Origin: Micromonospora sp. WMMA1947
GTDB lineage: Bacteria > Actinomycetota > Actinomycetes > Mycobacteriales > Micromonosporaceae
Length of the DNA: 64,000 nucleotides
Assembly: GCF_027497355.1 (NCBI RefSeq)
Contig: NZ_CP114909.1
Location: 5,413,001 to 5,477,000 of the forward strand
Reading direction: 5' to 3'
Below the pieces are notes generated by a model. The model ran no database searches. It had not been told where the DNA came from and saw only the letters and a list, made by a program, of their open reading frames with translations. A program made the position numbers and the translations under genes. Shown piece by piece: positions 2,631 through 17,511 of this stretch (positions are counted from its first letter, which is position 1; each line of letters begins with the position of its first letter).

Positions 2631-4751
<2,121 letters not shown>

Positions 4752-4994
4752 GTCGCTCCTTCGGCCCATGATCGTGAGCGCATCGGGCGGGGGCACCGCC
4801 GTTACGCACGCCGGTGATGCCCCGTCGTACCGCCCGTCAATCCACCCGTTCGGACGGTAACCGAAATCCGCCCTCGTGGGGCCGGGTGTCACGTTCGGGT
4901 GTCGCTGTCCCGATCCGCTCGCCCGTCCCGGCACTTTCCGTACCCGGACCGCAGAATAGGCAGGTCACTTCACAGTAGAGGGTCAGCCGCACCC

Positions 4995-5066
4995 ATTGAC
5001 GCCCCTCCCCTACTTTATCTCCTCGTTACATCGGCTTCCCGCGATCAGAAAGGGGGGCAATTGATG
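4995..5066 (+). promoter_or_regulatory. Upstream copy of a duplicated leader element
   Basis: ATTGACG, about 12 variable bases, CTTTATCTCC, one base, CGTTACATC (4995-5032), followed at 5041 by GATCAGAAAGGGGGGCAATT and an ATG. The same three blocks recur in the same order at 5181-5298 before the precursor gene. TTGACG resembles a -35 box, but no good -10 sits 16-18 bp downstream, so a regulator site or a non-housekeeping promoter is as likely. The stretch is visibly less GC-rich than its flanks. Confidence 0.5.
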
Positions 5067-5291
5067 CGGCAATTCATCGCCGGACCCCATCTGACCTGCG
5101 CATCTCGAATGGTGGAACCGGAACTACGCCGCGTCACCGCCCGGAATCTTTCTGTTCTCGACCGGCCTTCACCTGCGCGAATTGACGATTCCATCGTGCT
5201 TTATCTCCCCGTTACATCAGGGCGGCGTCAATCCCGTCAGGACCGGCCTACGCTTCATTCCACTGTCCACATCGATCCGAAAAGAGGATGA
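5064..5291 (+). CDS. Small ORF of unknown function behind the first leader copy
   Basis: A 75-aa ORF (MRQFIAGPHLTCASR...) with an AAGGGGGG ribosome-binding site 6 bases upstream. The protein resembles nothing I know and has neither the cysteine-rich tail nor the leader of the neighbouring precursor. Its 3' part overlaps the second copy of the leader element, so it may be a chance ORF or the remnant of a duplicated precursor gene whose body was lost. Only its leader and start region match the real precursor gene. Confidence 0.25.
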   Translation: MRQFIAGPHLTCASRMVEPELRRVTARNLSVLDRPSPARIDDSIVLYLPVTSGRRQSRQDRPTLHSTVHIDPKRG

Positions 5292-5298
5292 ATCGATG
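5181..5298 (+). promoter_or_regulatory. Leader element and RBS of the precursor gene
   Basis: Second copy of the element: ATTGACG at 5181, CTTTATCTCC at 5199, CGTTACATC at 5210-5218. It ends in GATCCGAAAAGAGGATGAAT before the ATG at 5296. AGAGG gives a normal ribosome-binding site. The distance from the CGTTACATC core to the ATG is longer than in the first copy. Probably the control region of the whole biosynthetic operon. Confidence 0.5.
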
Positions 5299-5514
5299 GG
5301 TGAAAGCAGGAACGTGTCGATCGACCTGTCCGACCTGGACACCACGGCGGTCTCCTGGTCGGGTGTCGGTGACGAGGCGTCGGCGGGGCTGTACGCCATG
5401 CCGACGGCCGGCGGGATCACCCTGACCGACCCGTCCGCCATGGGCAAGGGCTCCTGCGGCGGCGCCGCGTGCCAGGGCCGGCCGATCCAGTGGTGCTGCG
5501 TCAACTGCCACTGA
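5296..5514 (+). CDS. Azol(in)e-type RiPP precursor peptide
   Basis: A 72-aa peptide. The leader (about residues 1-40) is acidic, with DLSDLDTTAVSW and AMPTAGG, and recalls the DLSDLD...ALPE leaders of actinobacterial thiopeptide and TOMM precursors. The tail contains GKGSCGGAACQG and QWCCVNCH, with five cysteines at 54, 59, 67, 68 and 71, plus Ser/Thr at 42, 44, 47 and 53 that could be cyclised. Genes for an RRE/ThiF protein, a YcaO cyclodehydratase and a SagB dehydrogenase follow on the same strand, so Cys-to-thiazol(in)e conversion is expected. The GG at 39-40 could mark leader cleavage. The product is not one I recognise. No LanB-type dehydratase is present, which argues against a thiopeptide. 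Confidence 0.85.
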   Translation: MGESRNVSIDLSDLDTTAVSWSGVGDEASAGLYAMPTAGGITLTDPSAMGKGSCGGAACQGRPIQWCCVNCH

Positions 5515-5520
5515 TCATCG

Positions 5521-5550
5521 CGGAGCCGCCGGCGATCGCCGGCGGCTCCG
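5521..5550 (+). terminator. Perfect hairpin between precursor and biosynthetic genes
   Basis: A perfect 30-base palindrome with 15-base arms, starting CGGAGCCGCCGGCGA, lies 6 bases after the precursor stop. There is no T-tract, as is usual in high-GC actinomycetes. The position suggests a partial terminator or RNA-stabilising stem giving more precursor than enzyme mRNA, a common arrangement in RiPP operons. Confidence 0.7.
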
Positions 5551-5608
5551 TCCCACCGTCAGCACGGCCGGTGGTCCGGCTCGTGGGACAAGCGGAGAGG
5601 TACGTCAG

Positions 5609-6961
5609 ATGAGCGTTGAACCCGGTCGAGCCGTCGAGCTGAGCGTGGTGATCCCCACCCACGCGGACGCCCCCTGCCTGGAGCTCACGCTGCGGTCGCT
5701 GCGGCGCCAGACGCTGGACCCGGACCGCTTCGAGGTCATCGTGGTCCGCGACGGTGGGGACGGCAGCCAGTACTCCGGCATCGCCGACGCCGGCAAGGGA
5801 CTGCGCCTGCACTTCGTCGAACGGCCCGAGCGCGGCGGCCGGGCGGCGGCCCGCAACGAGGCCGCGCGCCGGGCGACCGCGCCGCTGCTGCTGTTCCTCG
5901 ACGCCGACTCGTACGCCACGCCGGACCTGCTGCGCCGCCACCTCGACCACCACCGCGACCCGTCCGCGCCCGCGGTGCTGATGGGCCGGCGCGACGAGAC
6001 CGGCATCGAGCACGTGCACGCGGCGCTGGCCGACCAGCCGACCATGCCCGTACCGCGGCTACGCGGACGCGGCGGCGGCGACATGCGGTTCGGGACCGAG
6101 GAGGGCCCGTCCGGCGACGACTGGCTGATGTCCGGCTGGCTGTTCTGCTTCACCCACAACGCGTCGGTACGCCGGGACGTGTTCGAGGCGGTCGGCGGCT
6201 TCGACGAGGGCTTCGGCCTGCGCTGGGGCCTGGAGGACATGGAGCTGTTCTACCGGGTGCACGCACACCTCGGCGTGCTCAACCGCAACTTCGCCTACGA
6301 CGACCTGGCCGCCGTCTACCACCTGCCGCACCACCGCAACGTCATCCAGAACTGGAACGACTTCATGGACAACCTGGATCGGGTCGCGTTGAAGTACCCG
6401 GTCGTGGAGTGGGAGTTCGCCGGGCCGGTGGACGTGGCCCGCGCGGCCGAGCGGGTGGTGCACTACCGCCGGGCCATGGACGACTGCGCACGCCGGTCCT
6501 GGTGCCGGATCGGTCCGGCGGTGCAGCGGCTCGCCGATCGCCTGCCCGGCGACCGGGTGCTGTGGGTCGGCACCGGCAGCGCCGAGGCCGGGCTGCCCGA
6601 CGGCGCGTTGACCTACGACTACGGGGCGCCGGCGGGTCCGGCCAACTTCCACCTGGTCGGGATCAGGCCACCGGTCGCCCCGAACAGCCTGGACGCCGTG
6701 GTCAGCGTCGACTTCTGGCGGTACCTCTACTGGGAGGACCTGTGCCAGTTCGTCAACGTCGCGGGTGCCCTCGCCGACGAGGTGCACCTGGTCTCCACCG
6801 GCGCGGAACTCTCCGCGCGGTTCGACCCGGATCCGGCGAGCCTGGGTTACCTCGGCCGGGTCATGGGCGCCGCCTTCGAGACCACCCTGACCGAGGTCGA
6901 CGGCCTCGGTTCGGTGCTGCGGCTGCGCCCGCACCACCGTGCCGCCGTCGCGGCCGGCTGA
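5609..6961 (+). CDS. GT2-family glycosyltransferase with methyltransferase-like C-terminal domain
   Basis: A 450-aa protein. Residues 10-230 are a GT-A fold: ELSVVIPTHAD start, VVRDGGDGS, RNEAAR, and the metal-binding LFLDADS with DAD at 98-100. GWGLEDMELFYR near 210 supplies the ED acceptor motif. Residues ~300-445 look like a shortened class I methyltransferase fold (VLWVGTGSAE, then LDAVVSVDFW). The acidic residue normally expected after motif I is not evident, so the domain may be non-catalytic. It is the first gene after the precursor, with GGAGAGG before its ATG. GT2 enzymes such as SunS S-glycosylate cysteines in glycocins, so modification of this peptide is the natural hypothesis. Making a sugar-containing envelope component is the alternative. 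Confidence 0.8.
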   Translation: MSVEPGRAVELSVVIPTHADAPCLELTLRSLRRQTLDPDRFEVIVVRDGGDGSQYSGIADAGKGLRLHFVERPERGGRAAARNEAARRATAPLLLFLDADSYATPDLLRRHLDHHRDPSAPAVLMGRRDETGIEHVHAALADQPTMPVPRLRGRGGGDMRFGTEEGPSGDDWLMSGWLFCFTHNASVRRDVFEAVGGFDEGFGLRWGLEDMELFYRVHAHLGVLNRNFAYDDLAAVYHLPHHRNVIQNWNDFMDNLDRVALKYPVVEWEFAGPVDVARAAERVVHYRRAMDDCARRSWCRIGPAVQRLADRLPGDRVLWVGTGSAEAGLPDGALTYDYGAPAGPANFHLVGIRPPVAPNSLDAVVSVDFWRYLYWEDLCQFVNVAGALADEVHLVSTGAELSARFDPDPASLGYLGRVMGAAFETTLTEVDGLGSVLRLRPHHRAAVAAG

Positions 6962-6979
6962 CCGGGATCGGCAGCACCG

Positions 6980-7987
6980 ATGCCCGTGATCGAGGCCAGT
7001 GGCCTGACCAAGCGGTTCCGGATCGCCGACAAGCAGCCGGGCCTGCGCGGCTCGCTGCGCCATCTCGTACGGCCACGGCACGTCGAGCACGTGGCGGTCG
7101 ACGGCATCGACCTGTCGATCACCTCCGGTGAGGCGGTCGCGTACGTCGGGCCCAACGGCGCCGGGAAGTCGACGACGGTCAAGCTGCTCACCGGCATCCT
7201 GCACCCCACCGCCGGGCGGGTACGCGTCTGCGGCCTCGACCCGCACCGCGACCGGCACGCCAACGCCCGCAACATCGGCGTGCTGTTCGGCCAGCGCAGC
7301 CAGCTCTGGTGGGACCTGCAGGTCCGCGACTCGCTGGCCCTGCTGCGCGACATCCACCGCATCCCCCGGGCCCGGTACGCGGCACGCCTGGAGGAGTTCG
7401 ACGCGCTGCTCGGGCTCGGCCGGCTGCTGCCGGTGGTCGCCCGGCAGCTCTCGCTCGGCCAGCGGATGCGGGCCGACCTGGCCGCCGCGCTGCTGCACTC
7501 ACCACCCGTGGTGTTCCTCGACGAGCCGACCATCGGGCTGGACATCGTCGCCCGGCAGGCGGTCCGGGACTTCCTGCGGGCCCAGCGCGCGAGCGGGACC
7601 ACGGTGCTGATGACCACGCACGACATCGGCGACATCGAGCAGGTCTGCCGCCGGCTCGTGATCATCGACGAGGGCCGGATCATCTTCGACGGCTCGATCG
7701 ACGCCGTCCGCCGGCTGGTCGCGGACCAGCGGACCGTGCACCTGACGCTCGGCGCCGACTGGCACGGCGACCTCGACGCCGACCTTCCGGGCGTCCGGCT
7801 GGCCGACGACGGGTCGGCGCGGCAGATCGCTGTCACGTTCGACCACGGCGCGTACGGCGCCGGCGAGATCGTCTCGGTGGTCGCCCGTCAGGCGCCGGTG
7901 GTGGACATCCGGATCGACGAGCCGTCCATCGAGGACGTGGTCCGCCGGGCGTACGCCGGCGAGCTGAGCCCGTCGGTGCCGGCATGA
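6980..7987 (+). CDS. ABC transporter ATP-binding protein
   Basis: A 335-aa ABC ATPase of the ABC-2 export type. Walker A GPNGAGKST near residue 55, Q-loop LFGQRSQLWWD, signature LSLGQRMRADL, Walker B VVFLDEPT, and H-loop TTHDIGD. A C-terminal extension of ~90 residues is typical of drug and lipid exporters of the DUF990-permease group. It overlaps the next permease gene by 4 bp. With the two permeases it forms one exporter, most likely for the mature peptide and possibly giving self-immunity. Confidence 0.92.
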   Translation: MPVIEASGLTKRFRIADKQPGLRGSLRHLVRPRHVEHVAVDGIDLSITSGEAVAYVGPNGAGKSTTVKLLTGILHPTAGRVRVCGLDPHRDRHANARNIGVLFGQRSQLWWDLQVRDSLALLRDIHRIPRARYAARLEEFDALLGLGRLLPVVARQLSLGQRMRADLAAALLHSPPVVFLDEPTIGLDIVARQAVRDFLRAQRASGTTVLMTTHDIGDIEQVCRRLVIIDEGRIIFDGSIDAVRRLVADQRTVHLTLGADWHGDLDADLPGVRLADDGSARQIAVTFDHGAYGAGEIVSVVARQAPVVDIRIDEPSIEDVVRRAYAGELSPSVPA

Positions 7988-8778
7988 GGGCGTACCTGAC
8001 GCTGGCCCGGATGTCCTGGTCGACGCTGCTGATCTACCGGGGCGAGTTCCTCCTCCAGCTCACCGGGGTCGTGGTGCAGACCGTGGCGCTGTTCGCGGTC
8101 TGGCAGGCCGTCTTCGCCGGCGCGGCCGGCGGCGAGGTGGGCGGGTTGTCCTGGGAGCAGATGAAGGGCTACCTGGTCGTGGCGTTTCTGACCGGGGCGC
8201 TGCTGTCGAGCTTCACCGACGCGCAGATCGCCGGTCCGGTGCTGCACGGCACGGTGGCGCTCGACCTGGTCCGGCCGATCGACTACCAGCTCTCGCGTTT
8301 CGCGCTGTCGCTCGGATACGTCGTCGGCGAGGTGCTGACGGTGGCGGTGATGGCGGCGACGCTGGTGTCGGCGTTCGGCGGCGCCGCGCTGCCCGCCGCC
8401 GGTCAGGCCGGACTGTTCCTGCTCAGCCTGCTGGCGGTGGTGCCGCTGAAGTTCGGCCTGGTCTACCTCGTCGGGCTGCTGTGCTTCTGGACCGGCAACT
8501 TCCACGGGCTGAGCCTGTCCCGGGTCGCGATCACCAACATCCTCTCCGGGGCGCTGGTGCCGATCGCGTTGTTCCCGGGCTGGCTTCAGGTCGTCTGCCA
8601 GCTGTCCCCGTTCCCCGGCATCGTCTCCACCCCGGCGCTGATCTACCTGGGGCAGGTACGCGGCGCCGAGGCGGTGACGCTGATCGGCGTACAGCTGCTC
8701 TGGGTCGTGGTGTTGTGGGGTGCGGCCCGGCTGCTGTGGTCCGCGGGCGTGCGGCGGCTCACCGCGCACGGCGGGTGA
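7984..8778 (+). CDS. ABC-2 family permease, first subunit
   Basis: A 264-aa membrane protein with about six hydrophobic segments, starting MRAYLTLARMSWSTLLIYRGEF. This N-terminal pattern and size fit the ABC-2 permease family formerly called DUF990, which works as a heterodimer with a second similar permease. The ATG overlaps the ATPase stop. The product acts in the cytoplasmic membrane. Substrate is inferred only from the cluster. Confidence 0.85.
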   Translation: MRAYLTLARMSWSTLLIYRGEFLLQLTGVVVQTVALFAVWQAVFAGAAGGEVGGLSWEQMKGYLVVAFLTGALLSSFTDAQIAGPVLHGTVALDLVRPIDYQLSRFALSLGYVVGEVLTVAVMAATLVSAFGGAALPAAGQAGLFLLSLLAVVPLKFGLVYLVGLLCFWTGNFHGLSLSRVAITNILSGALVPIALFPGWLQVVCQLSPFPGIVSTPALIYLGQVRGAEAVTLIGVQLLWVVVLWGAARLLWSAGVRRLTAHGG

Positions 8779-8785
8779 CCGGCCG

Positions 8786-9574
8786 ATGATGCACGAGGCA
8801 CGGATCTACCGCCGGCTGCTCGGCGCGCATCTGCGGGCGGTGCTCGAGTACCGGGCCGACGCGCTCCTGACGATCGGGGCGACAGTGCTCGGCCAGTTCG
8901 CCGGGCTGATCTTCGTGGTGATGGTGTTCCGGCAGGTGACGGCGCTCGGCGGGTGGACCCGCTGGGAGGTGCTGTACGTCTGCGCGATGGTGATGCTCGC
9001 CGAGGGCGTCGGCTCCCTGCTGTTCGAGGGGACCTGGCATCTCGGCGGCCTGGTCAACCTCGGCCTGCTGGACTACCTGCTGGTCCGGCCCTACCCGGTG
9101 GTGCTCCAGGTCACCGGCAACGCGGTCGGGTTCAACGGTCTCGGCAACGTCGGGTTCGGCGCGGCGCTGCTCGGCGCCGCGGCCGTCCACCTCGACCTGG
9201 CCTGGACGCCGCTGACGGTGCTCTGGGCGGTGGTGCTGCTCGCCAGCGGCGTGCTGGTCAAGCTGGCGGTCAACCTGGCCACCAACGCGGTCGTCTTCTG
9301 GCTGCTGAGCCCGTCCAGCTCACTCGCGGCGAGCGTGCACACCCTGGGCGACCTGGCCCGCTACCCGCTGACCCTGTACGGCACCGGCCTGCGCTCGCTG
9401 CTGACCCTCGTACCCGTCGCGTTCGTCGGCTACTTCCCGACGGCCGCGCTGCTGGACAAGGGTGCCTCGACCACGGCGGGCGCGCTCACCCCGGTCGTCG
9501 CGGCGGCCTGCGCGGCCGGGGCGTGGGCGGTCTTCCGGGCCGGGTTGCGCCGGTACGAGAGCGCGGGCAGCTGA
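8786..9574 (+). CDS. ABC-2 family permease, second subunit
   Basis: A 262-aa membrane protein (MMHEARIYRRLLGAHLRAVLEYRADALL) with about six membrane segments, the partner of the preceding permease. The motif LLDYLLVRPYPVVLQ mirrors the VALDLVRPIDYQLS segment of the first permease, as expected for DUF990-type pairs. Two adjacent ATG codons are possible; the first is used. It lies 7 bp after permease 1 and 1 bp before the dehydrogenase gene, so it is in the same operon. Confidence 0.85.
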   Translation: MMHEARIYRRLLGAHLRAVLEYRADALLTIGATVLGQFAGLIFVVMVFRQVTALGGWTRWEVLYVCAMVMLAEGVGSLLFEGTWHLGGLVNLGLLDYLLVRPYPVVLQVTGNAVGFNGLGNVGFGAALLGAAAVHLDLAWTPLTVLWAVVLLASGVLVKLAVNLATNAVVFWLLSPSSSLAASVHTLGDLARYPLTLYGTGLRSLLTLVPVAFVGYFPTAALLDKGASTTAGALTPVVAAACAAGAWAVFRAGLRRYESAGS

Positions 9575-9575
9575 G

Positions 9576-11117
9576 ATGGCGACCTCGGAGGCCGGCGTCA
9601 CCGGCCGGTACCTGGCGGCGGTGCGGGCCGGCACCGAGCAGCCGGCGGCGTACCTGCCGCCCCGCGGCAAGCGGTACCCCGGTGCGGCCCGCCGGCCGCT
9701 GCGGTGGCCCGGCCCGGGGTCCGTGCCGCTCGGCGACGGCCGCCTCGACCGGCTCAGCGCGATGCTTCTCGGGTACGCGCCACGCCGGGCGGAGACGATC
9801 ACGCTGGCCGGGCTGTCCGCGCTGACCGGCGCCCCGCTGGACACGCCCACGCCGTCGCGGCTGCTGCCCGGCTGGCACACGCTGCGCCGGTCGGTGCCCT
9901 CCGGCGGGGCGTTCCACCCCAACGAGATCTACCTCGCCTGGGCCGGCTCCCCCGACCTCGCGGCCGGCGTCTACCACTACGACCCGCCACACCACTGCCT
10001 GGAACTGCTGCGCCCGGGCAGCCCGGCCGCCCGGCTCGACCGGCTTCTCGGGGTCGCGGCGGCACCCCGGCACGCGCTGCTGCTGACCCACCGGCCGTGG
10101 AAGAACACCAGCAAGTACGGAGCGTTCGGCTACCGGCTGGGCATCGTCGACTCCGGTGTCCTGCTGGCCCAGTTGCTCACGTCGCCGGTGGACGCGACAC
10201 CGCGCCTGGACCTCGATCCGGCGCTCGCCGGTGAGCTGCTCGGACTCGACGCCGAGTTGGAGGCCACCTACGCGGCGATCGAGTTCCCCGCGGACGCGGA
10301 CGTCCCCTCCACACCGCTCGCATCCGGCGGGCCGCCCCCGGCGACCGGGCTGGACCACGACCGGCTCGGCCGCGACGCCGCCCACCCGAGCGCGGTGGCG
10401 CTGCACCGGGCGACGTACGGCCGGGGCGCCGACCGCGAGCCTCCTGCGCTCGACCGCGTCCCGGCCCAGCGCCTCCCGGCGGGCCGGCCGCTCGATCTGC
10501 CGCCGGCCCGGCCGCTCGACCTGGTCGCGGCCGCCGCCCGCCGCGCGTCCGCGGCGAACCTCGGCCCCGGGCTGACCGCCGGGCAGGTCGCCGACATCCT
10601 GGCCTGCGCCGCCGGGCGGGCCGGGTCGCCGGCGCTGGCGGCGCTGGCCCGGCAGCGGCTGTACCCGGAGATCTGGTGCCTCGCCCGGACCGTCGACGGC
10701 ATCCCGGCCGACGCGTACCGCTACCAGCCGCACCGGCACCGGCTGGTGCCGACCGGGCCGCCGGGAGCGGACGACGACGCGGCGGCGTACCCGCACCGGG
10801 TCGACCGCCGGATGGTCACCCGCGGCGCGACCCTCTACCTGGTCCACGCCGGAAGCCGGCCCGTCGACCAGCTCACCCCGGCCTCGTTCCACCGGCTGCA
10901 CCTGCTCGCCGGCGTGGCCCTTCACCTGGCCGGGCTCGCCGCCACCGCGACCGGCGCGGCGAGCCGGGCGCTGGGCGGCCTCGCCGCCGACGCGGTCGCC
11001 GCCCGGCTCGGCCTGCCGGACGGGGCGACGCCGCTGACGCAACTGCTGGTCGGCACGCCCGCGCCGCGTCCCGGGGTGCTGGCGGCCCATCTCACCGAAG
11101 GGAACCCTCATGGCTGA
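9576..11117 (+). CDS. SagB-type azoline dehydrogenase, two nitroreductase domains
   Basis: A 513-aa FMN-dependent nitroreductase-fold enzyme, expected to oxidise thiazolines and oxazolines to the aromatic azoles. The N-terminal half has RRSVPSGGAFHPNEIYLA (FMN/phosphate region), GVYHYDPPHH, and WKNTSKYGAFGYRLGI, matching the SagB Tyr-x-x-Tyr-Arg region with a catalytic-type Lys/Tyr. From residue ~310 a second, more divergent nitroreductase-like half follows (DLVAAAARRAS..., YRYQPHRHRL). Such tandem forms occur in actinobacterial SagB proteins. The ATG is 1 bp after the upstream stop. Its presence implies that the final product contains azoles and not only azolines. Confidence 0.87.
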   Translation: MATSEAGVTGRYLAAVRAGTEQPAAYLPPRGKRYPGAARRPLRWPGPGSVPLGDGRLDRLSAMLLGYAPRRAETITLAGLSALTGAPLDTPTPSRLLPGWHTLRRSVPSGGAFHPNEIYLAWAGSPDLAAGVYHYDPPHHCLELLRPGSPAARLDRLLGVAAAPRHALLLTHRPWKNTSKYGAFGYRLGIVDSGVLLAQLLTSPVDATPRLDLDPALAGELLGLDAELEATYAAIEFPADADVPSTPLASGGPPPATGLDHDRLGRDAAHPSAVALHRATYGRGADREPPALDRVPAQRLPAGRPLDLPPARPLDLVAAAARRASAANLGPGLTAGQVADILACAAGRAGSPALAALARQRLYPEIWCLARTVDGIPADAYRYQPHRHRLVPTGPPGADDDAAAYPHRVDRRMVTRGATLYLVHAGSRPVDQLTPASFHRLHLLAGVALHLAGLAATATGAASRALGGLAADAVAARLGLPDGATPLTQLLVGTPAPRPGVLAAHLTEGNPHG

Positions 11118-11991
11118 ACAGGACGTTCCGGCGCTCGTCGGCACCCCCACGCCGGACACGGTGCTCGCGGCGGTCGCCGAGCACGGCGCGGTGCTGCTGC
11201 GCGGCGGGTGGCGGCACGAGGACTACGTCGCGCTCGGCGACGCGCTGATGACCGCGTCGCCGTACCAGGGCGGGTTCCACGACGAGCGGGACGTGATCGG
11301 CGGTGACCCGACGACGACCACGGTCACGCGGGGAACGCAGGGCATGCCGCTGCACCGGGAGGCGTCGTACGCGCCGGGCGCGCCGGACCTGCTGATGTTC
11401 CGGTGCGAGCGGCCCGCCGCCGACGGCGGGGCCACCACGCTGTGCGACGGTCTCGCGCTGCTGGCCGGCCTGCCCGCCGCGGTCCGCGCCGCCTGCGAGG
11501 AGCTGACGCTGCGCTGGGAGAGCGCGCTGCCCACAACGGTGTGGCAGCAGATGTGCGGCACGACCGACCCGGCCGCGGCGGAGCGGATGCTGCGGCAGTG
11601 GGAGCCGTACCTGCGGCCGTGGGAGTCGATCCACATCGACGTGGACGAGGACGCGATGACTGTCGGCTTCGGCACCCGGTGCACGCCGCCGACCCTCTTC
11701 GAAGGCGTGCCGGCGTTCTGCAACTCGCTGTTCATCAGCCGCCCGCAGCCCGGCGAGTACCACGACCGGCGGCTGCGGGTGCGCTCCGGTACCGGCGCAC
11801 CGGTGCCCGAGGACCTCGTGGCCACCGCTGCGGACGTCGCCGCGCGGCTGACGGTGGCGGTGCCGTGGCGGTCCGGTGACGTGCTGGTCGTGGACAACTC
11901 CCGGTACCTGCACGGCCGGCAGGCGTTCACCGACGCCGGACGCGCGGTCGCGGTACGGATGGGCCACCTGCGGAAGGAGGCGGCCGCGTGA
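11110..11991 (+). CDS. TauD/TfdA-family Fe(II)/2-oxoglutarate oxygenase
   Basis: A 293-aa cupin-fold oxygenase. Metal ligands appear as LHREASY (His82, Glu84; the family has HxD/E) and the distal His in NSRYLHGRQAF. An Arg about 13 residues later (AVAVRMGH) would bind 2-oxoglutarate. The order and spacing fit the TauD/TfdA and clavaminate-synthase-like group. It overlaps the dehydrogenase gene by 8 bp and the next gene by 4 bp, so it is firmly part of the cluster. A hydroxylation or desaturation of the peptide (or of an attached sugar) is likely. The exact reaction cannot be read from sequence. Such an oxygenase is not a core LAP enzyme. Confidence 0.85.
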   Translation: MAEQDVPALVGTPTPDTVLAAVAEHGAVLLRGGWRHEDYVALGDALMTASPYQGGFHDERDVIGGDPTTTTVTRGTQGMPLHREASYAPGAPDLLMFRCERPAADGGATTLCDGLALLAGLPAAVRAACEELTLRWESALPTTVWQQMCGTTDPAAAERMLRQWEPYLRPWESIHIDVDEDAMTVGFGTRCTPPTLFEGVPAFCNSLFISRPQPGEYHDRRLRVRSGTGAPVPEDLVATAADVAARLTVAVPWRSGDVLVVDNSRYLHGRQAFTDAGRAVAVRMGHLRKEAAA

Positions 11992-13898
11992 GGGTCAAGC
12001 TCCGCGACGACCTGATGTACGTACCGGTCGACGACGGCGTGTACCTGGAGACGGGACTCGCCGGCACGCACGTGGCGGGCGCGTCGGCGTACAGCCTCGT
12101 GCAGCGGCTCGCCCCGCACCTGGACGGCACCCGCACGGTGGAGGCGCTGACCGCGGGTCTCCCCCCGGCGCAGCGGCAGCTCGTCACCGACCTGGTCCGG
12201 ATGCTGGTGCGGCGCGGCATCGCCCGCGACCTCGACAGCGAGCCGCCACACACGTTGCGGGACTGGGAACTCGACACCTACCGGGACTCGATCGCGTTCG
12301 CCGAGCACGTCACCGACGCGCCGCTGAGCCGCTTCGAGGCGTTCCGCGACGGACGGGTGCTGCTCGTCGGCGCCGGCGCCGGCATGCTCGCGCTCGTCCG
12401 GACGCTGTTCGAACTCGGGCTGCGTACGGCTTCGCTGGTCGAGACCGCCGAGACCGGCAACGAACGTGACGGCTTCCGGCGGATCGTCGAGCGGCGTCGT
12501 GCCCAGGACCCGACGACCGGGCTGACGCTGCTGGACGCGGCCGCCGCCCTCGACACCGACGAAGGGCTCACCGGCCTGCTGGCGGGGTACGACGCGGTGC
12601 TGCACTGCGCCGCGCGGCCGATGGCCGGGCGGGCGACGCGGCTGAACCGGGCGGCCCGGGCGATCGGGGTGCCCGTCCTGCACGCGGTGCCCGGCGGCGC
12701 GGAGGCGTGGATCGGCCCCACCGGCGGCGGCGTCACCGGCGGCTGCTGGGAGTGCGGCCTGCTCAGCCGGCAGGGCGCCGGGCTCCCCGCGGGTGACGGC
12801 GACGAGCCGGACACGACGTCCGAGTGGCTGTCGGCACCGGTCTGCGGCCTGATCGGCGCGGCGCTCGGGTTCGCGTACCTGCGCCACCGCCTGGGAGCGG
12901 AGACCACCGCCACGAACCGGCTGACCCGCGTGGACCTGGAAAGCGCTGTCACCAGCGAACATCTGCTCGACGTGCACCCCCGCTGCCGCTCCTGCCGGCC
13001 CTCGGCCCCGTACGCCGATCTCGCCGCGCACGTCGACGCGATGGCCGCCCGCACGCCGGTGGACGTCGAGGAGTTCGTCGCCCGGATGCCGTTCCTGGTC
13101 GACGCGCGGCTGGGCCCGCTGCTGGCCATCGACACCGGCGCCCACTCGCAGATCTCGGTCAGCTGCGTCGAGGCGACGGTCGTGGACCTGGCCGGCGGCG
13201 CCCCGCGGCTGCTCACCGCCGTCGGCGGCAGCCGGGAGCAGGCGTTGCTGCGCGCGGCCACGGCGGCACTGGAGACGCTCGCGGCGCGGGCCTGCGCCGA
13301 CGACGCCGCCACGGCGTGGTGGGACACCGCGCGTGGCGCTCTCGTCGACGCGCAGCCGGACGGCGAGGTGATCGCCGGCGGTCACACCTGGGCGGAGGCG
13401 CAGGGCCGGGCGATCCTGAAACTGCGACGCGCGGCCGCGACCCCGCCGGAGGCCACCACCGCCGACGGTGGGCCGCCCGGCGGCTGGCTCGACCCGGCGC
13501 GGTGGCCGGAGCCGACCCGCGTCATGGCCCACGAGCTGGCCCTCCTGGGCCACGAGCCGCGGGCGTGGCACGACGGATCGAGCACCCCGACCGTGTTCGT
13601 CGCCGCCGGCGACAGATGGGTCGCCCACAGCTGTGCCACCGACACGGACACCGCCCTGGCGAACGCGATGCAGGCGGCGGTCGCCGTCCTGACCGGACGC
13701 CGCCCGGACGGCGCCGAGATCGGACCGGACGTGGGCGGCTACGACTGGGACACGGCGCTGCCGCCGCTGCTGCGCGAGCTGGCACGCGACGGGCGGTCGC
13801 TGCTGGTACGGCCGGCCGACTCGCTGCCCGGGGCGCAGCGGGTGATGCCGTTCATGATCAGGGCGGCGTGGTCGCCACGAGCGGGGAGCAGCGCATGA
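11988..13898 (+). CDS. RRE/ThiF-like leader-binding partner of the cyclodehydratase (F protein type)
   Basis: A 636-aa protein starting at a GTG that overlaps the upstream TGA. Residues 1-85 (LRDDLMYVPVDDGVYLE...) are a PqqD-like winged-helix RRE that would bind the precursor leader. Residues ~120-260 are a ThiF/E1-like Rossmann domain (VLLVGAGAGMLALVRTL). Two Cys pairs, CWEC near 250 and CRSC near 335, look like a structural zinc site. Length and order match the ocin-ThiF-like family (for example HcaF of heterocycloanthracin clusters), which delivers leader to a fused C-D enzyme. No ATP-dependent adenylation is expected from this subunit. Confidence 0.85.
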   Translation: MRVKLRDDLMYVPVDDGVYLETGLAGTHVAGASAYSLVQRLAPHLDGTRTVEALTAGLPPAQRQLVTDLVRMLVRRGIARDLDSEPPHTLRDWELDTYRDSIAFAEHVTDAPLSRFEAFRDGRVLLVGAGAGMLALVRTLFELGLRTASLVETAETGNERDGFRRIVERRRAQDPTTGLTLLDAAAALDTDEGLTGLLAGYDAVLHCAARPMAGRATRLNRAARAIGVPVLHAVPGGAEAWIGPTGGGVTGGCWECGLLSRQGAGLPAGDGDEPDTTSEWLSAPVCGLIGAALGFAYLRHRLGAETTATNRLTRVDLESAVTSEHLLDVHPRCRSCRPSAPYADLAAHVDAMAARTPVDVEEFVARMPFLVDARLGPLLAIDTGAHSQISVSCVEATVVDLAGGAPRLLTAVGGSREQALLRAATAALETLAARACADDAATAWWDTARGALVDAQPDGEVIAGGHTWAEAQGRAILKLRRAAATPPEATTADGGPPGGWLDPARWPEPTRVMAHELALLGHEPRAWHDGSSTPTVFVAAGDRWVAHSCATDTDTALANAMQAAVAVLTGRRPDGAEIGPDVGGYDWDTALPPLLRELARDGRSLLVRPADSLPGAQRVMPFMIRAAWSPRAGSSA

Positions 13899-15844
13899 CC
13901 GACGTCACGACCACACCGGCCGTCCCCGCCTCGTCCGACGTGGCACCTCGTCCCGGCCTGCGGATCCTCGGCGCCGGCGCGCTGCGCCGGGAGGTGGAAC
14001 AGGCACTGCGCGCCGCCCCGGTCGCCGACGTCGACGTCTTCGTCGTCGACGGGCCGCCGGAGGACGTCGCCGTGGCCGCCCGGGCGGCTGCCGACGCCGG
14101 CCGTGCCTTCCTGCCGGTGTACACCACACCGCGCGGCGTACGGATCGGCCCGTACGTCACACCCGGGCGGCCGGGCTGCCACCACTGCGTCCAGGTGCGC
14201 GAACGCCGGGCGCGGACCACCGGGACACCGCACCGGTCCGCGCTGTGGCAGGCGCTCTACGACGGCAACGTGCCGCCCGCCCGGCCCGTCCTCGGCCCGC
14301 CGGTACGCGCCACGGTCGCCGCGCTCGTGGCCGACGAGCTGCGCCGGGTCGCCCAGGGCGGCGACGGCCGGTGCACGGAAGCGGTGCTGGAGGTCGCCAC
14401 GGCCTCGCTGACCGTCAAGCGGCACCGGTTCGTCCCCGAACCCGGCTGCCCGGTGTGCGACCCGTTGCCGGACGACAGCCCGGCCGCCGGCACCTTCACG
14501 CTGACGTCCCGGCCGAAGCGGGCACCCGGCGACTACCGGGCCCGCAGCCTCCCCGACGAGCACCTCGCCCTGCTGGCGGCGCTGCACGACGAGGAGACCG
14601 GGCTGCTGTCGTCGATCACCGTCCACCACAACCATCCGATGGTCCTCGCCGGCGCGATCGGCGGCCCGTTGTGCTGTGGTGAACTGGCCGGCTACGGCCG
14701 GACCTTCACCTACCCGGCGAGCGTGGCCGTCGCCGTTGCCGAGGCGCTGGAACGGCTCGGCGGCAACGTCCCGCGCGCCCGCCGTACCGTCACCCGCGCC
14801 TCGTTCCGCGAACTCGGGCCGCGGCGGGCCGTCGAGCCGACGGCGCTCGGGCTGCCGCCCGCGCCGCCCGACGACCACGCGGTCGCGTACGACCCGGACC
14901 GGCCCGTGGAATGGGTGTACGCCTACTCGTTCCGGCGCGACGGCCCGGTGCTGGTGCCGGAGACCTTCGCCTACTACGGCTCGCACGGCACGGGTTTCGG
15001 TCCGGAGTGCTCCAACGGCTGCGCGCTGGGCGCGAACCTCGAAGAGGCGATCCTGCACGGCATCTTCGAGGTCGCCGAACGGGACGCCTTCCTGTCCACC
15101 TGGTACGCCCGGCTACCCGTGCCGCGCGTGGACCCGATGACCTCCGCCGACCCGATGACCCGCGTGCTCGTCGACTGGATCCAGCGGACCACCGGCAGCC
15201 GCCTGGACGTCTTCGACATCACCATGCCCGAAGGCATCCCGGCGGTGTGGCTGATGCTCGTCGACGACGAGGTGCGGCCCGGACGTCCCCGGGCGTTCTG
15301 CGGTGCGGGGGCGCACCTGGACCCGGAGCGCGCCCTGTGGTCCGCGCTGGTGGAACTCGCCAGCGTCGCCGAGGCCACCCGGGAGATGGTCGCCGAGGAC
15401 ACCACGGCCGCCGGTCTCGTCGCCGACTCCGGCCTGGTCCGGACCATGGAGGACCACCTGCTGGCGGCGGCCAGTCCGGACGCCTGGCCACGCTTCGCGT
15501 TCCTGTACGAGCGCGACGAGATCCGGTCCATGGCGGAGGCCTTTCCGCCGGCGGCGCGCTACCGCCCGGCCACGGACCTGCTCGACGACCTGCGGCACGT
15601 GGCCGGACGCTACCTCGACGAGGGCCTGGACGTGGTGGTCGTCGACCAGACCGCCCGCGAGCAGGCGGCCGTCGGCCTCACCAGCGTGAAGGTGCTGATC
15701 CCGGGGCTGCTGCCGATGACGTTCGGTCACCGCAACCGGCGCGTCGACCTGCCCCGGCTGCGCGAGCTGCCGGTCCGGCTCGGACACCGGGCCGAACCGC
15801 TCGCTCCGGAGGAGATCAACCCGTATCCGCACCCGTTCCCGTGA
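13895..15844 (+). CDS. Fused C-YcaO thiazole/oxazole cyclodehydratase
   Basis: A 649-aa protein. Residues 1-210 form an E1-like C domain with a zinc site from CHHC and CPVC. Residues ~215-649 are the YcaO (SagD-type) domain that uses ATP to cyclise Cys/Ser/Thr. Supporting features are HGTGFGPECSNGCALG, EEAILHGIFEVAERDAF with the ATP/Mg-site glutamates, and the C-terminal Pro-rich end NPYPHPFP resembling the PxPxP tail required in azoline-forming YcaO proteins. It overlaps the F-protein gene by 4 bp and is the last gene of the operon. Together with the F protein it should install azolines on the precursor cysteines. Confidence 0.92.
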   Translation: MTDVTTTPAVPASSDVAPRPGLRILGAGALRREVEQALRAAPVADVDVFVVDGPPEDVAVAARAAADAGRAFLPVYTTPRGVRIGPYVTPGRPGCHHCVQVRERRARTTGTPHRSALWQALYDGNVPPARPVLGPPVRATVAALVADELRRVAQGGDGRCTEAVLEVATASLTVKRHRFVPEPGCPVCDPLPDDSPAAGTFTLTSRPKRAPGDYRARSLPDEHLALLAALHDEETGLLSSITVHHNHPMVLAGAIGGPLCCGELAGYGRTFTYPASVAVAVAEALERLGGNVPRARRTVTRASFRELGPRRAVEPTALGLPPAPPDDHAVAYDPDRPVEWVYAYSFRRDGPVLVPETFAYYGSHGTGFGPECSNGCALGANLEEAILHGIFEVAERDAFLSTWYARLPVPRVDPMTSADPMTRVLVDWIQRTTGSRLDVFDITMPEGIPAVWLMLVDDEVRPGRPRAFCGAGAHLDPERALWSALVELASVAEATREMVAEDTTAAGLVADSGLVRTMEDHLLAAASPDAWPRFAFLYERDEIRSMAEAFPPAARYRPATDLLDDLRHVAGRYLDEGLDVVVVDQTAREQAAVGLTSVKVLIPGLLPMTFGHRNRRVDLPRLRELPVRLGHRAEPLAPEEINPYPHPFP

Positions 15845-15927
15845 CCGTCCCATGTGCGCGGAGGCGTCGGAGAGTGATGAGGATCGCTCACCGCGCGCGA
15901 GAGGATCCGGCACAGTAGGTTGGCAGG

Positions 15928-16053
15928 GTGACTGGACGGTTCCGGTTGCCGATCGACGTCAGCACCTTCCCGGTGGCCCTCGATCGGTGTCCGGCCCAGG
16001 CCGTCGTCGGCGACCTGGTGCCGACGCCCGGCCGGCCATCCGGTCGCTCCTGA
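15928..16053 (+). CDS. Possible leaderless 41-aa ORF
   Basis: GTG ACT GGA CGG begins a 41-codon ORF (VTGRFRLPIDVSTFPVALDR...) ending at 16053. TAGGTT at 15916-15921 could be a -10 box placing transcription start at the GTG, the leaderless pattern frequent in actinomycetes. No -35 box is convincing and there is no ribosome-binding site. I do not recognise the peptide. The rest of the 15845-16113 gap shows nothing I can assign. Confidence 0.22.
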   Translation: MTGRFRLPIDVSTFPVALDRCPAQAVVGDLVPTPGRPSGRS

Positions 16054-16113
16054 CCACCGCTCGTCGCCGCCACCGATGCCGGCGTGCCTCACCATGCATG
16101 GACGGAGATCCAC

Positions 16114-17511
16114 GTGACCACTCTGCGGGTCGGCGCTCAGCCCGCCACCGCGACGGACCGGCTCCACCGGCCCACCCTCACCTCCCGGCCGGCGCCCCCG
16201 TCGCCGGCCGGGGCCGGGCCCCGGACCCGGCGCATCCTGATGCTGTCGTGGGAGTACCCGCCGGTGCTCGTCGGCGGCCTCGGCCGCCACGTCCACGCAC
16301 TCTCCGTGGCGCTGGCCGCCGCCGGGCACGAGGTCACCGTCGTCACCCGCCACGCCGAGGGCCCTCCCCTCGAGGAGTACGCCGACGGCGTCCGCATCGT
16401 CCGCGCCGCCGAGGACCCGGTCACCTTCCCCCTCGCCACCGGCTCGCTGCTCGCCTGGACGATGGCGTTCAACCACACCCTCACCCGGGCCGCGCTGCGC
16501 GCCGCCTCCGCCGGCACGTACGACGTGATCCACGCCCACGACTGGCTCGTCGCACACACCGCGATGACGCTGCGCGAGCACCTGGACGTGCCGCTGGTCA
16601 GCACCATCCACGCCACCGAGGCGGGCCGGCACCAGGGCTGGCTGCCGGAGGAGATGAACCGCACCATCCACGGCGTCGAGCACTGGCTCGCCGGCGAGTC
16701 CGGCCGGGTGATCGTCTGCTCCGGCTACATGCGCGACGAGGTGGGCGCACTGTTCGGCGTCGACGCCGCCCGCGTCGACGTGGTGCCCAACGGCGTCGAG
16801 CCGCACCGCTGGCGGGTGCCCGCGTCGGCGGTCGCCGCCGCCCGCGCCCGGTTCGCCGCCGACGGCCCGCTGGTCACGTTCGCCGGCCGCCTCGTGTACG
16901 AGAAGGGCGTGCAGCACCTGCTGGCCGGGCTGCCCCGGCTGCGCGAGCGGCACCCCGGGCTGCGCGCGGTGATCGTCGGCGACGGGCCGTACAAGGCGGA
17001 CCTGGAGGCCGAGGTGCACCGCCTCGGGCTGGGCGGCACCGTCAGCATGCCCGGGTTCCTCGGCGGCACCGACCTGCCCGCCGTGATGGCCGCCTCGGAC
17101 TGCTTCGCGGTGCCGAGCATCTACGAGCCGTTCGGCATGGTGGCGCTGGAGGGTGCCGCCGCGGGCGCGCCGCTCGCTGTCGCCCGTACCGGTGGGCTGG
17201 CCGAGATCGTCGAGCCGGGCGTCACCGGGATGACGTTCGCCCCGCACGACCCGGACGGCCTCGCCGAGGCGGTGCACACGCTGCTGTCGGACCGGGACCG
17301 GGCCCGTGCGCTCGCCCGGCGGGCCCGCGCCATGGTGCACGAGCAGTACGGCTGGGCGGCCATCGCGTCCCGTACGGCTGCCGCGTACGCCGCCGCCATC
17401 GCCGGCGACCCGGCGTTCACCGCCGCCCGCGCCCAGCACCGCATGGCACACGGCCAGCCCACGCCGCGCGTCCCCGAGGGCAACCTCCTCACCGCCGCCG
17501 GCCTCCGCTAG
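16114..17511 (+). CDS. GT4 alpha-glucan glycosyltransferase, Rv3032-like
   Basis: A 465-aa GT-B enzyme. The N-terminal ILMLSWEYPPVLVGGLGRHVH matches mycobacterial Rv3032, an alpha-1,4-glucosyltransferase that elongates methylglucose lipopolysaccharide and glycogen-type glucans. Further shared blocks are VIHAHDWLVAHTA, STIHATEAGRHQGW, FAGRLVYEKGVQ, and the nucleotide-sugar-binding SIYEPFGMVALEGAAAG with the E-x7-E motif. About 35 extra N-terminal residues are low-complexity. I use GTG at 16114 because GGAG lies 6 bases upstream; an ATG at 16084 has none. The usual DUF1957 branching-enzyme partner (Rv3031) is not next door. Confidence 0.8.
   Translation: MTTLRVGAQPATATDRLHRPTLTSRPAPPSPAGAGPRTRRILMLSWEYPPVLVGGLGRHVHALSVALAAAGHEVTVVTRHAEGPPLEEYADGVRIVRAAEDPVTFPLATGSLLAWTMAFNHTLTRAALRAASAGTYDVIHAHDWLVAHTAMTLREHLDVPLVSTIHATEAGRHQGWLPEEMNRTIHGVEHWLAGESGRVIVCSGYMRDEVGALFGVDAARVDVVPNGVEPHRWRVPASAVAAARARFAADGPLVTFAGRLVYEKGVQHLLAGLPRLRERHPGLRAVIVGDGPYKADLEAEVHRLGLGGTVSMPGFLGGTDLPAVMAASDCFAVPSIYEPFGMVALEGAAAGAPLAVARTGGLAEIVEPGVTGMTFAPHDPDGLAEAVHTLLSDRDRARALARRARAMVHEQYGWAAIASRTAAAYAAAIAGDPAFTAARAQHRMAHGQPTPRVPEGNLLTAAGLR

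What the first reader, a model, noticed from the sequence alone, without database searches (positions are those of the whole stretch)
5296..15844. Azole-type RiPP cluster with a GT2 glycosyltransferase and a 2-oxoglutarate oxygenase
Seen: precursor with five C-terminal Cys, GT2 enzyme, ABC exporter, SagB dehydrogenase, TauD-like oxygenase, F-type RRE/ThiF protein and C-YcaO fusion, all overlapping or closely spaced on one strand. Known: F protein plus C-YcaO plus SagB makes azoles (heterocycloanthracin type), and GT2 enzymes S-glycosylate cysteines in glycocins. Inference: the product may be a glycosylated, oxidised azole peptide, a combination I do not know as a described class.
Basis: partly seen in the sequence, partly recalled or inferred. 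Interest (0 to 1): 0.92.

Follow-up and report, generated by a model that had tools for sequence, protein, structure and literature searches.

The report
Sugar-decorated thiazole peptide gene cluster
A Micromonospora-type bacterium carries a compact gene set that probably makes a small ring-hardened peptide and then adds oxygen and a sugar to it, a combination that would be an unusual kind of natural peptide if chemistry confirms it.

Summary
Window 5296-15844 is a nine-gene, one-strand operon: 72-aa precursor with five C-terminal Cys, GT2, three ABC genes, SagB, TauD oxygenase, F protein (PbtF-like RRE), C-YcaO. It fills an insertion of about 11.1 kb between glgX and a GT4 gene; three relatives have 65-93 bp there. 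In 354 genomes of the family, GT2 and C-YcaO lie together in 7, which own the eight best C-YcaO hits and form one clade. TauD is in 6 of the 7. One member adds a PIG-L-type protein and a second GT2-like one; another a sugar-methyltransferase-like protein. Best reading: an F-dependent linear azole peptide, related by leader and heterocyclase to thiopeptides but without their dehydratase or pyridine synthase, tailored by a 2OG oxygenase and a GT-A glycosyltransferase. Azoles are likely; the sugar is supported genetically but unproven, its acceptor unknown. Against: 61 of the 68 genomes with this GT2 have it away from any detected C-YcaO, and cluster-linked GT2s are not one clade. New variant of a known kind.

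The parts
4916..16025 (.). inserted island of about 11.1 kb holding the whole cluster, between glgX (2631-4934, -; its start lies at the left edge) and a GT4 gene (16084-17511, +)
   Evidence: homology to G123 stops at 4915 and resumes at 16026; to G045 and G291 at 4866 and 16028; 65, 93 and 93 bp lie between the two in those genomes
5013..5032 (+). 20-bp upstream direct repeat, copy 1
   Evidence: two copies in the genome at up to 2 mismatches, both here; G274 also has two, with 1 and 2 mismatches, 187 bp apart (186 here); none in G227, G123, G037, G194
5199..5218 (+). 20-bp upstream direct repeat, copy 2, ending 77 bp before the precursor start
   Evidence: role (promoter or regulator site) inferred
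5296..5514 (+). precursor peptide, 72 aa, core ending CGGAACQGRPIQWCCVNCH
5521..5550 (+). 30-base palindrome, strong hairpin between precursor and GT2, without a T-run
   Evidence: fold z -3.58; hairpins also in L091 -4.90, L031 -3.07, L034 -4.71, weak in L033 -1.18; no T-run terminator found
5609..6961 (+). GT2 (GT-A) glycosyltransferase, 450 aa, with an extra C-terminal domain of alternating strands and helices
   Evidence: C-terminal part: no Pfam hit in the window's protein, weak methyltransferase-type hits in two homologs
6980..7987 (+). ABC exporter ATPase (DrrA-like; best NCBIfam hit below its cut-off)
7984..8778 (+). ABC-2 permease 1
8786..9574 (+). ABC-2 permease 2
9576..11117 (+). 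SagB-type FMN azoline dehydrogenase
   Evidence: TIGR03605 above cut-off; start corrected
11110..11991 (+). TauD-family Fe(II)/2-oxoglutarate oxygenase; H82, E84, H268 invariant in 5 of 5 aligned rows
11988..13898 (+). F protein (ocin-ThiF-like) with N-terminal RRE, residues 2-80 like PbtF
13895..15844 (+). fused C-YcaO cyclodehydratase ending PYPHPFP

Best explanation
It is the biosynthetic operon of a linear poly-azole RiPP that is tailored by oxidation and glycosylation. Likely steps: (1) the F protein's RRE binds the leader at DLSDLDTTAV (inferred from homology); (2) the C-YcaO cyclises core Cys to thiazolines and SagB oxidises them to thiazoles (inferred from well-known families); (3) TauD hydroxylates a core residue and GT2 transfers a sugar from an NDP-sugar to the core, either onto that hydroxyl or onto a side chain left uncyclised (inferred; order and site unknown); (4) an unlinked protease removes the leader and the ABC exporter exports the product or protects the host (inferred). 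Shown here: gene content, island boundaries, co-inheritance, leader motif, conserved putative metal and sugar-site residues. Not shown: any chemistry.
Against: GT2 relatives occur in 68 of 354 genomes, 61 of them without a detected C-YcaO nearby; cluster-linked GT2s need 5 changes on the tree (4 forced by starred branches) and are hardly more clustered than shuffled labels (58 of 500 as low), so the family as a whole is not peptide-specific. G005 has no detected TauD (69% complete, 17-kb contig). In G037 the permease 1 and F hits are each split over two frames, so that copy may be broken or misread. No sugar-nucleotide gene and no leader protease among the nine genes. F protein is far below the TIGR03693 cut-off. 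The precursor profile did not find the G120 precursor; it was picked by a motif regex. No Ser/Thr acceptor is conserved; the G194 core has no Ser or Thr.
Confidence: 0.6

Rival explanations
1. Azole peptide without a sugar in the final product: GT2 and/or TauD are passengers, or the GT2 acts on another molecule (wall polymer, self-protection).
For: 61 of 68 genomes with this GT2 have it away from any detected C-YcaO; the tree mixes linked and unlinked GT2s; some unlinked ones sit beside EryCIII-like glycosyltransferases and ACP genes.
Against: GT2 in 7 of 7 clusters and directly next to the precursor gene in six of them, inside a sharply bounded island; further sugar-type enzymes in G120 and G005.
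Confidence: 0.22
2. A sub-case of the best explanation: glycocin-like S-glycosylation, the sugar sitting on a Cys thiol that escapes heterocyclisation.
For: Cys-rich core; the G194 core lacks Ser/Thr although GT2 is present; the second-best distinct PDB relative by sequence is AvpGT, which I recall, unchecked, as a glycocin-type enzyme.
Against: Tool results give no acceptor; a TauD-made hydroxyl would serve equally well in G194; no peptidase domain found on the ABC proteins.
Confidence: 0.25
3. A thiopeptide cluster with the dehydratase and pyridine synthase encoded elsewhere.
For: The sister heterocyclase clade includes a locus with a thiopeptide-like precursor, L037; PbtF-like RRE and leader motif.
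Against: No dehydratase or pyridine-synthase hit in the nine proteins; PF14028 in the genome only about 370 kb away; core has one Ser and no Thr, none of either in G194.
Confidence: 0.04

Closest known systems
Actinobacterial thiopeptides of the PbtA/TbtA type (GE2270, thiomuracin)
   Same: F protein with PbtF-like RRE, fused C-YcaO, SagB, leader motif at the position of Lx4F, Cys-rich core
   Different: no LanB-type dehydratase or pyridine synthase hit in the island; hardly any Ser/Thr in the window's core; GT2 and TauD added
Heterocycloanthracins (F-dependent LAPs)
   Same: F protein + fused C-YcaO + SagB (Cox 2015, PMC4603692, passages)
   Different: no CXX repeat core; precursor in the operon; GT2 and TauD
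YcaO-TfuA (thioamide) clusters with glycosyltransferases
   Same: glycosyltransferases are reported as the most abundant extra enzymes near them (PMC8120280, passages)
   Different: TfuA thioamide type, not F-dependent azole type; no product shown in the passages
RRE-glycosyltransferase (PF00535) fusions from RRE-Finder
   Same: GT2 enzymes proposed to act on RiPP precursors (PMC7470986 and PMC12710340, passages)
   Different: there the RRE is fused to the GT; here it is on the F protein
Glycocins (sublancin, thurandacin type)
   Same: GT2-fold enzyme beside a Cys-rich precursor
   Different: azole machinery instead of disulfides (recalled); no peptidase domain on the ABC proteins; GT2 has an extra C-terminal domain
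Glycosylated thiopeptides such as nocathiacin (recalled, no call)
   Same: sugar on an azole-containing RiPP, there on a hydroxylated residue
   Different: those are thiopeptides with other glycosyltransferase families

Membership tests
[quoted passage not shown]
   17 precursors compared, no Cys before the core in 17 of 17
[quoted passage not shown]
   TIGR03604 and TIGR03605 above cut-off; ends PYPHPFP
[quoted passage not shown]
   needs mass spectrometry
Heterocycloanthracin | F protein that carries the leader-binding RRE | tested here: met
   residues 2-80 like PbtF RRE; TIGR03693 match below its cut-off
Heterocycloanthracin | fused cyclodehydratase lacking about 100 N-terminal residues | tested here: inconclusive
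   TIGR03882 starts at residue 72 and no N-terminal RRE was reported; no direct length comparison was made
Heterocycloanthracin | core with repeated Cys-Xaa-Xaa | tested here: not met
   window core read
Thiopeptide | LanB-type dehydratase and pyridine synthase in the cluster | tested here: not met
   no such hit in the nine proteins; PF14028 only about 370 kb away
Thiopeptide | Ser/Thr-rich core for dehydroalanines | tested here: not met
   window core has 1 Ser/Thr, G194 core 0; other members up to 8
Glycocin | GT2-family peptide glycosyltransferase | tested here: inconclusive
   GT-A fold clear, acceptor unknown
Glycocin | peptidase-containing ABC exporter | tested here: not met
   no peptidase hit; ABC_tran and ABC2_membrane_6 families
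Glycocin | S- or O-linked sugar on the mature peptide | not testable with these tools
   needs product

The most novel reading that the evidence does not exclude
A previously undescribed RiPP subclass, so far seen only in Micromonosporaceae: F-dependent linear poly-thiazole peptides whose core is hydroxylated by a dedicated TauD oxygenase and glycosylated by a two-domain GT2 enzyme, the sugar being further edited (de-N-acetylation, methylation) in some members.
Probability: 0.55. Interest if true: 0.75.

Novelty: new variant of a known kind. Interest (0 to 1): 0.62.

Why it matters
Glycosylated RiPPs are called rare in two genome-mining papers of which I saw passages (PMC8120280; PMC10783134). 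A compact, bounded nine-gene operon with conserved relatives would give a tractable system that joins azole formation, 2OG oxidation and GT2 glycosylation on one peptide, with a family of 17 precursor sequences for structure-activity work, and a GT2 whose C-terminal domain has no Pfam hit in the window's protein.

Tried and rejected
Thiopeptide reading rejected (no dehydratase or pyridine-synthase hit; almost no Ser/Thr in the window's core). A second precursor copy in the genome: only a marginal hit, E 0.056. Precursor-like ORFs beside unlinked GT2 genes: none convincing in the 18 unlinked loci scanned within 1.5 kb (the same scan also missed the precursor of the linked locus L036, which lies farther off), and no profile hit up to E 0.1 in G273, G308, G271, G321, G332. 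T-run terminator and sigma-70-like promoter in 4900-5620: none. Plasmid relatives of C-YcaO at E 1e-80 or better: 3 records, all under 60% identity. SunS does not appear among the PDB matches listed for the GT2 by sequence or in the 50 fold rows shown; this excludes nothing. The oxygenase first seemed absent from G120 because the first 20-kb stretch was too short; one search corrected this.

Limits: the genome search scored only the best 3-4 candidates per genome, so lower hits may be missed. Of 85 GT2 places (the window's own included) have stretches of 8-20 kb or more read here; the other 59 were judged only by distance to C-YcaO hits, by eye from the lists. The C-YcaO tree has 32 rows of the 97 places listed. 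The GT2 tree has 29 rows. The C-terminal GT2 domain was not folded alone. The class-wide search gave 3 of 394 genomes, all in the same genus. MIBiG was not available. Ten paper searches showed no described cluster of this make-up in their listings; of the papers listed I saw passages of six (PMC4603692, PMC10783134, PMC10868606, PMC12710340, PMC7470986, PMC8120280). Most subscription papers are not in that library.

Full report
What is there. ORF listing and profile searches confirm a nine-gene operon at 5296-15844, + strand: precursor, GT2, ABC ATPase, two ABC-2 permeases, SagB, TauD, F protein, C-YcaO. Several genes overlap by a few bases. The F protein's residues 2-80 match the PbtF RRE (8t19, 2e-14), although its TIGR03693 score is far below that model's cut-off. 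TauD keeps H82-x-E84 and H268 in 5 of 5 aligned rows; that these are the iron ligands is family knowledge.

Boundaries. Of 41 genomes of the genus searched, glgX was found in 39 and the GT4 gene in 39, and in the listed coordinates they are usually close neighbours. Alignment of the window with G123, G045 and G291 shows homology ending at 4915 or 4866 and resuming at 16026 or 16028, with 65-93 bp between in those genomes; G274 aligns through the insert. So the nine genes fill an inserted island; no protease or sugar-nucleotide gene is among them.

Relatives. The C-YcaO search of the 354 held genomes of the family (80 with a match) and the GT2 search of the same 354 (68 with a match) place the two within 25 kb in 7 genomes: G000, G274, G037, G227, G194, G005, G120. 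These own the 8 best C-YcaO hits (E 1.8e-158 or better; the next is 1.8e-133). In a tree of 32 C-YcaO rows the 7 linked ones plus a lone extra copy in G227 form one clade (99/97; 0 of 500 shuffles as low). tblastn found no GT2 or TauD in 14 more distant C-YcaO neighbourhoods (L037-L050). Five clusters, the window's included, share the nine-gene order; in G037 the permease 1 and F hits are split over two frames. G120 and G005 have a different layout with a class III aminotransferase; G120 also has TauD, a PIG-L-like protein, a second GT2-like protein and a precursor; G005 has a sugar O-methyltransferase-like protein after its precursor, below that model's cut-off.

Precursors. Fifteen proteins were found, one of them the window's own; with those of G227 and G120 seventeen were compared. 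All fit D-L-[ST]-x-L-x4-[VILF] (17 of 17); the pattern was written after reading them, and the G120 one was itself picked by a regex of similar form. PMC12710340 (passages) reports that the PbtF RRE reads PbtA through an Lx4F motif. Cores hold 2-8 Cys and 0-8 Ser/Thr; 15 of 17 end in His. Interchange of Cys with Ser/Thr is what azole sites would show, and a G194 core without Ser or Thr would limit the sugar there to Cys, a nitrogen, or an enzyme-made hydroxyl (inference). Outside the clusters, eight database contigs appear to carry GT2 and TauD together and three of these also the precursor, judged by equal contig length.

Evidence against. The GT2 family is wider than the cluster: 68 of 354 genomes, 61 without a detected C-YcaO nearby; the tree of 29 rows needs 5 changes of the linked label, and 58 of 500 shuffles do as well. 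Some unlinked copies sit near EryCIII-like glycosyltransferases, ACPs and ketosynthase or adenylation genes, which fits natural-product glycosylation in general but shows the enzyme family is not tied to peptides. Glycosyltransferases near YcaO genes have been reported for thioamide-type clusters (PMC8120280, passages). No product, donor or acceptor is known.

Regulation. A 20-bp repeat (5013, 5199) occurs twice in the genome at up to 2 mismatches, both here, and twice at the matching place in G274. A strong hairpin follows the precursor stop in 4 of 5 loci folded, plausibly limiting read-through or protecting the precursor message (inference).

Verdict. A real, conserved, sharply bounded azole RiPP operon with a coupled oxygenase and glycosyltransferase; a new variant of F-dependent azole peptides, with the sugar on the product as a well-motivated but untested inference.

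Noticed in passing
L032:2570-4465 (-), genome G227: A second, lone C-YcaO, 70% identical to the window's and inside the same clade, lies convergent to G227's complete cluster, as if left from an older or replaced cluster.
   Followed up: partly
L031:10789-11579 and L031:5553-7513 (-), genome G037: The permease 1 and F protein matches are each split over two reading frames, by real breakage or by sequencing error.
   Followed up: no
G000:C1:5799274-5802140: Two PF14028 (Lant_dehydr_C) stretches about 370 kb from the cluster, probably another RiPP locus.
   Followed up: no
L055:3163-11330; L110:4232-12393: Relatives of this two-domain GT2 sit beside EryCIII-like glycosyltransferases, ACPs and, in L055, adenylating and VinK-like genes, suggesting a wider natural-product glycosyltransferase family.
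   Followed up: partly
window 15928-16053 (+): A 41-codon ORF after C-YcaO, with a counterpart in G274, that runs across the right edge of the insertion.
   Followed up: no
L041:10867-11914 (+), genome G075: Four neighbouring short ORFs with thiopeptide-like leaders and poly-Cys tails ahead of an F/C-YcaO pair.
   Followed up: no
L036:10874-12220 and L035:10519-11934: Class III aminotransferase in the two divergent members; role unknown (a daptide-type aminotransferase model matches below its cut-off).
   Followed up: partly
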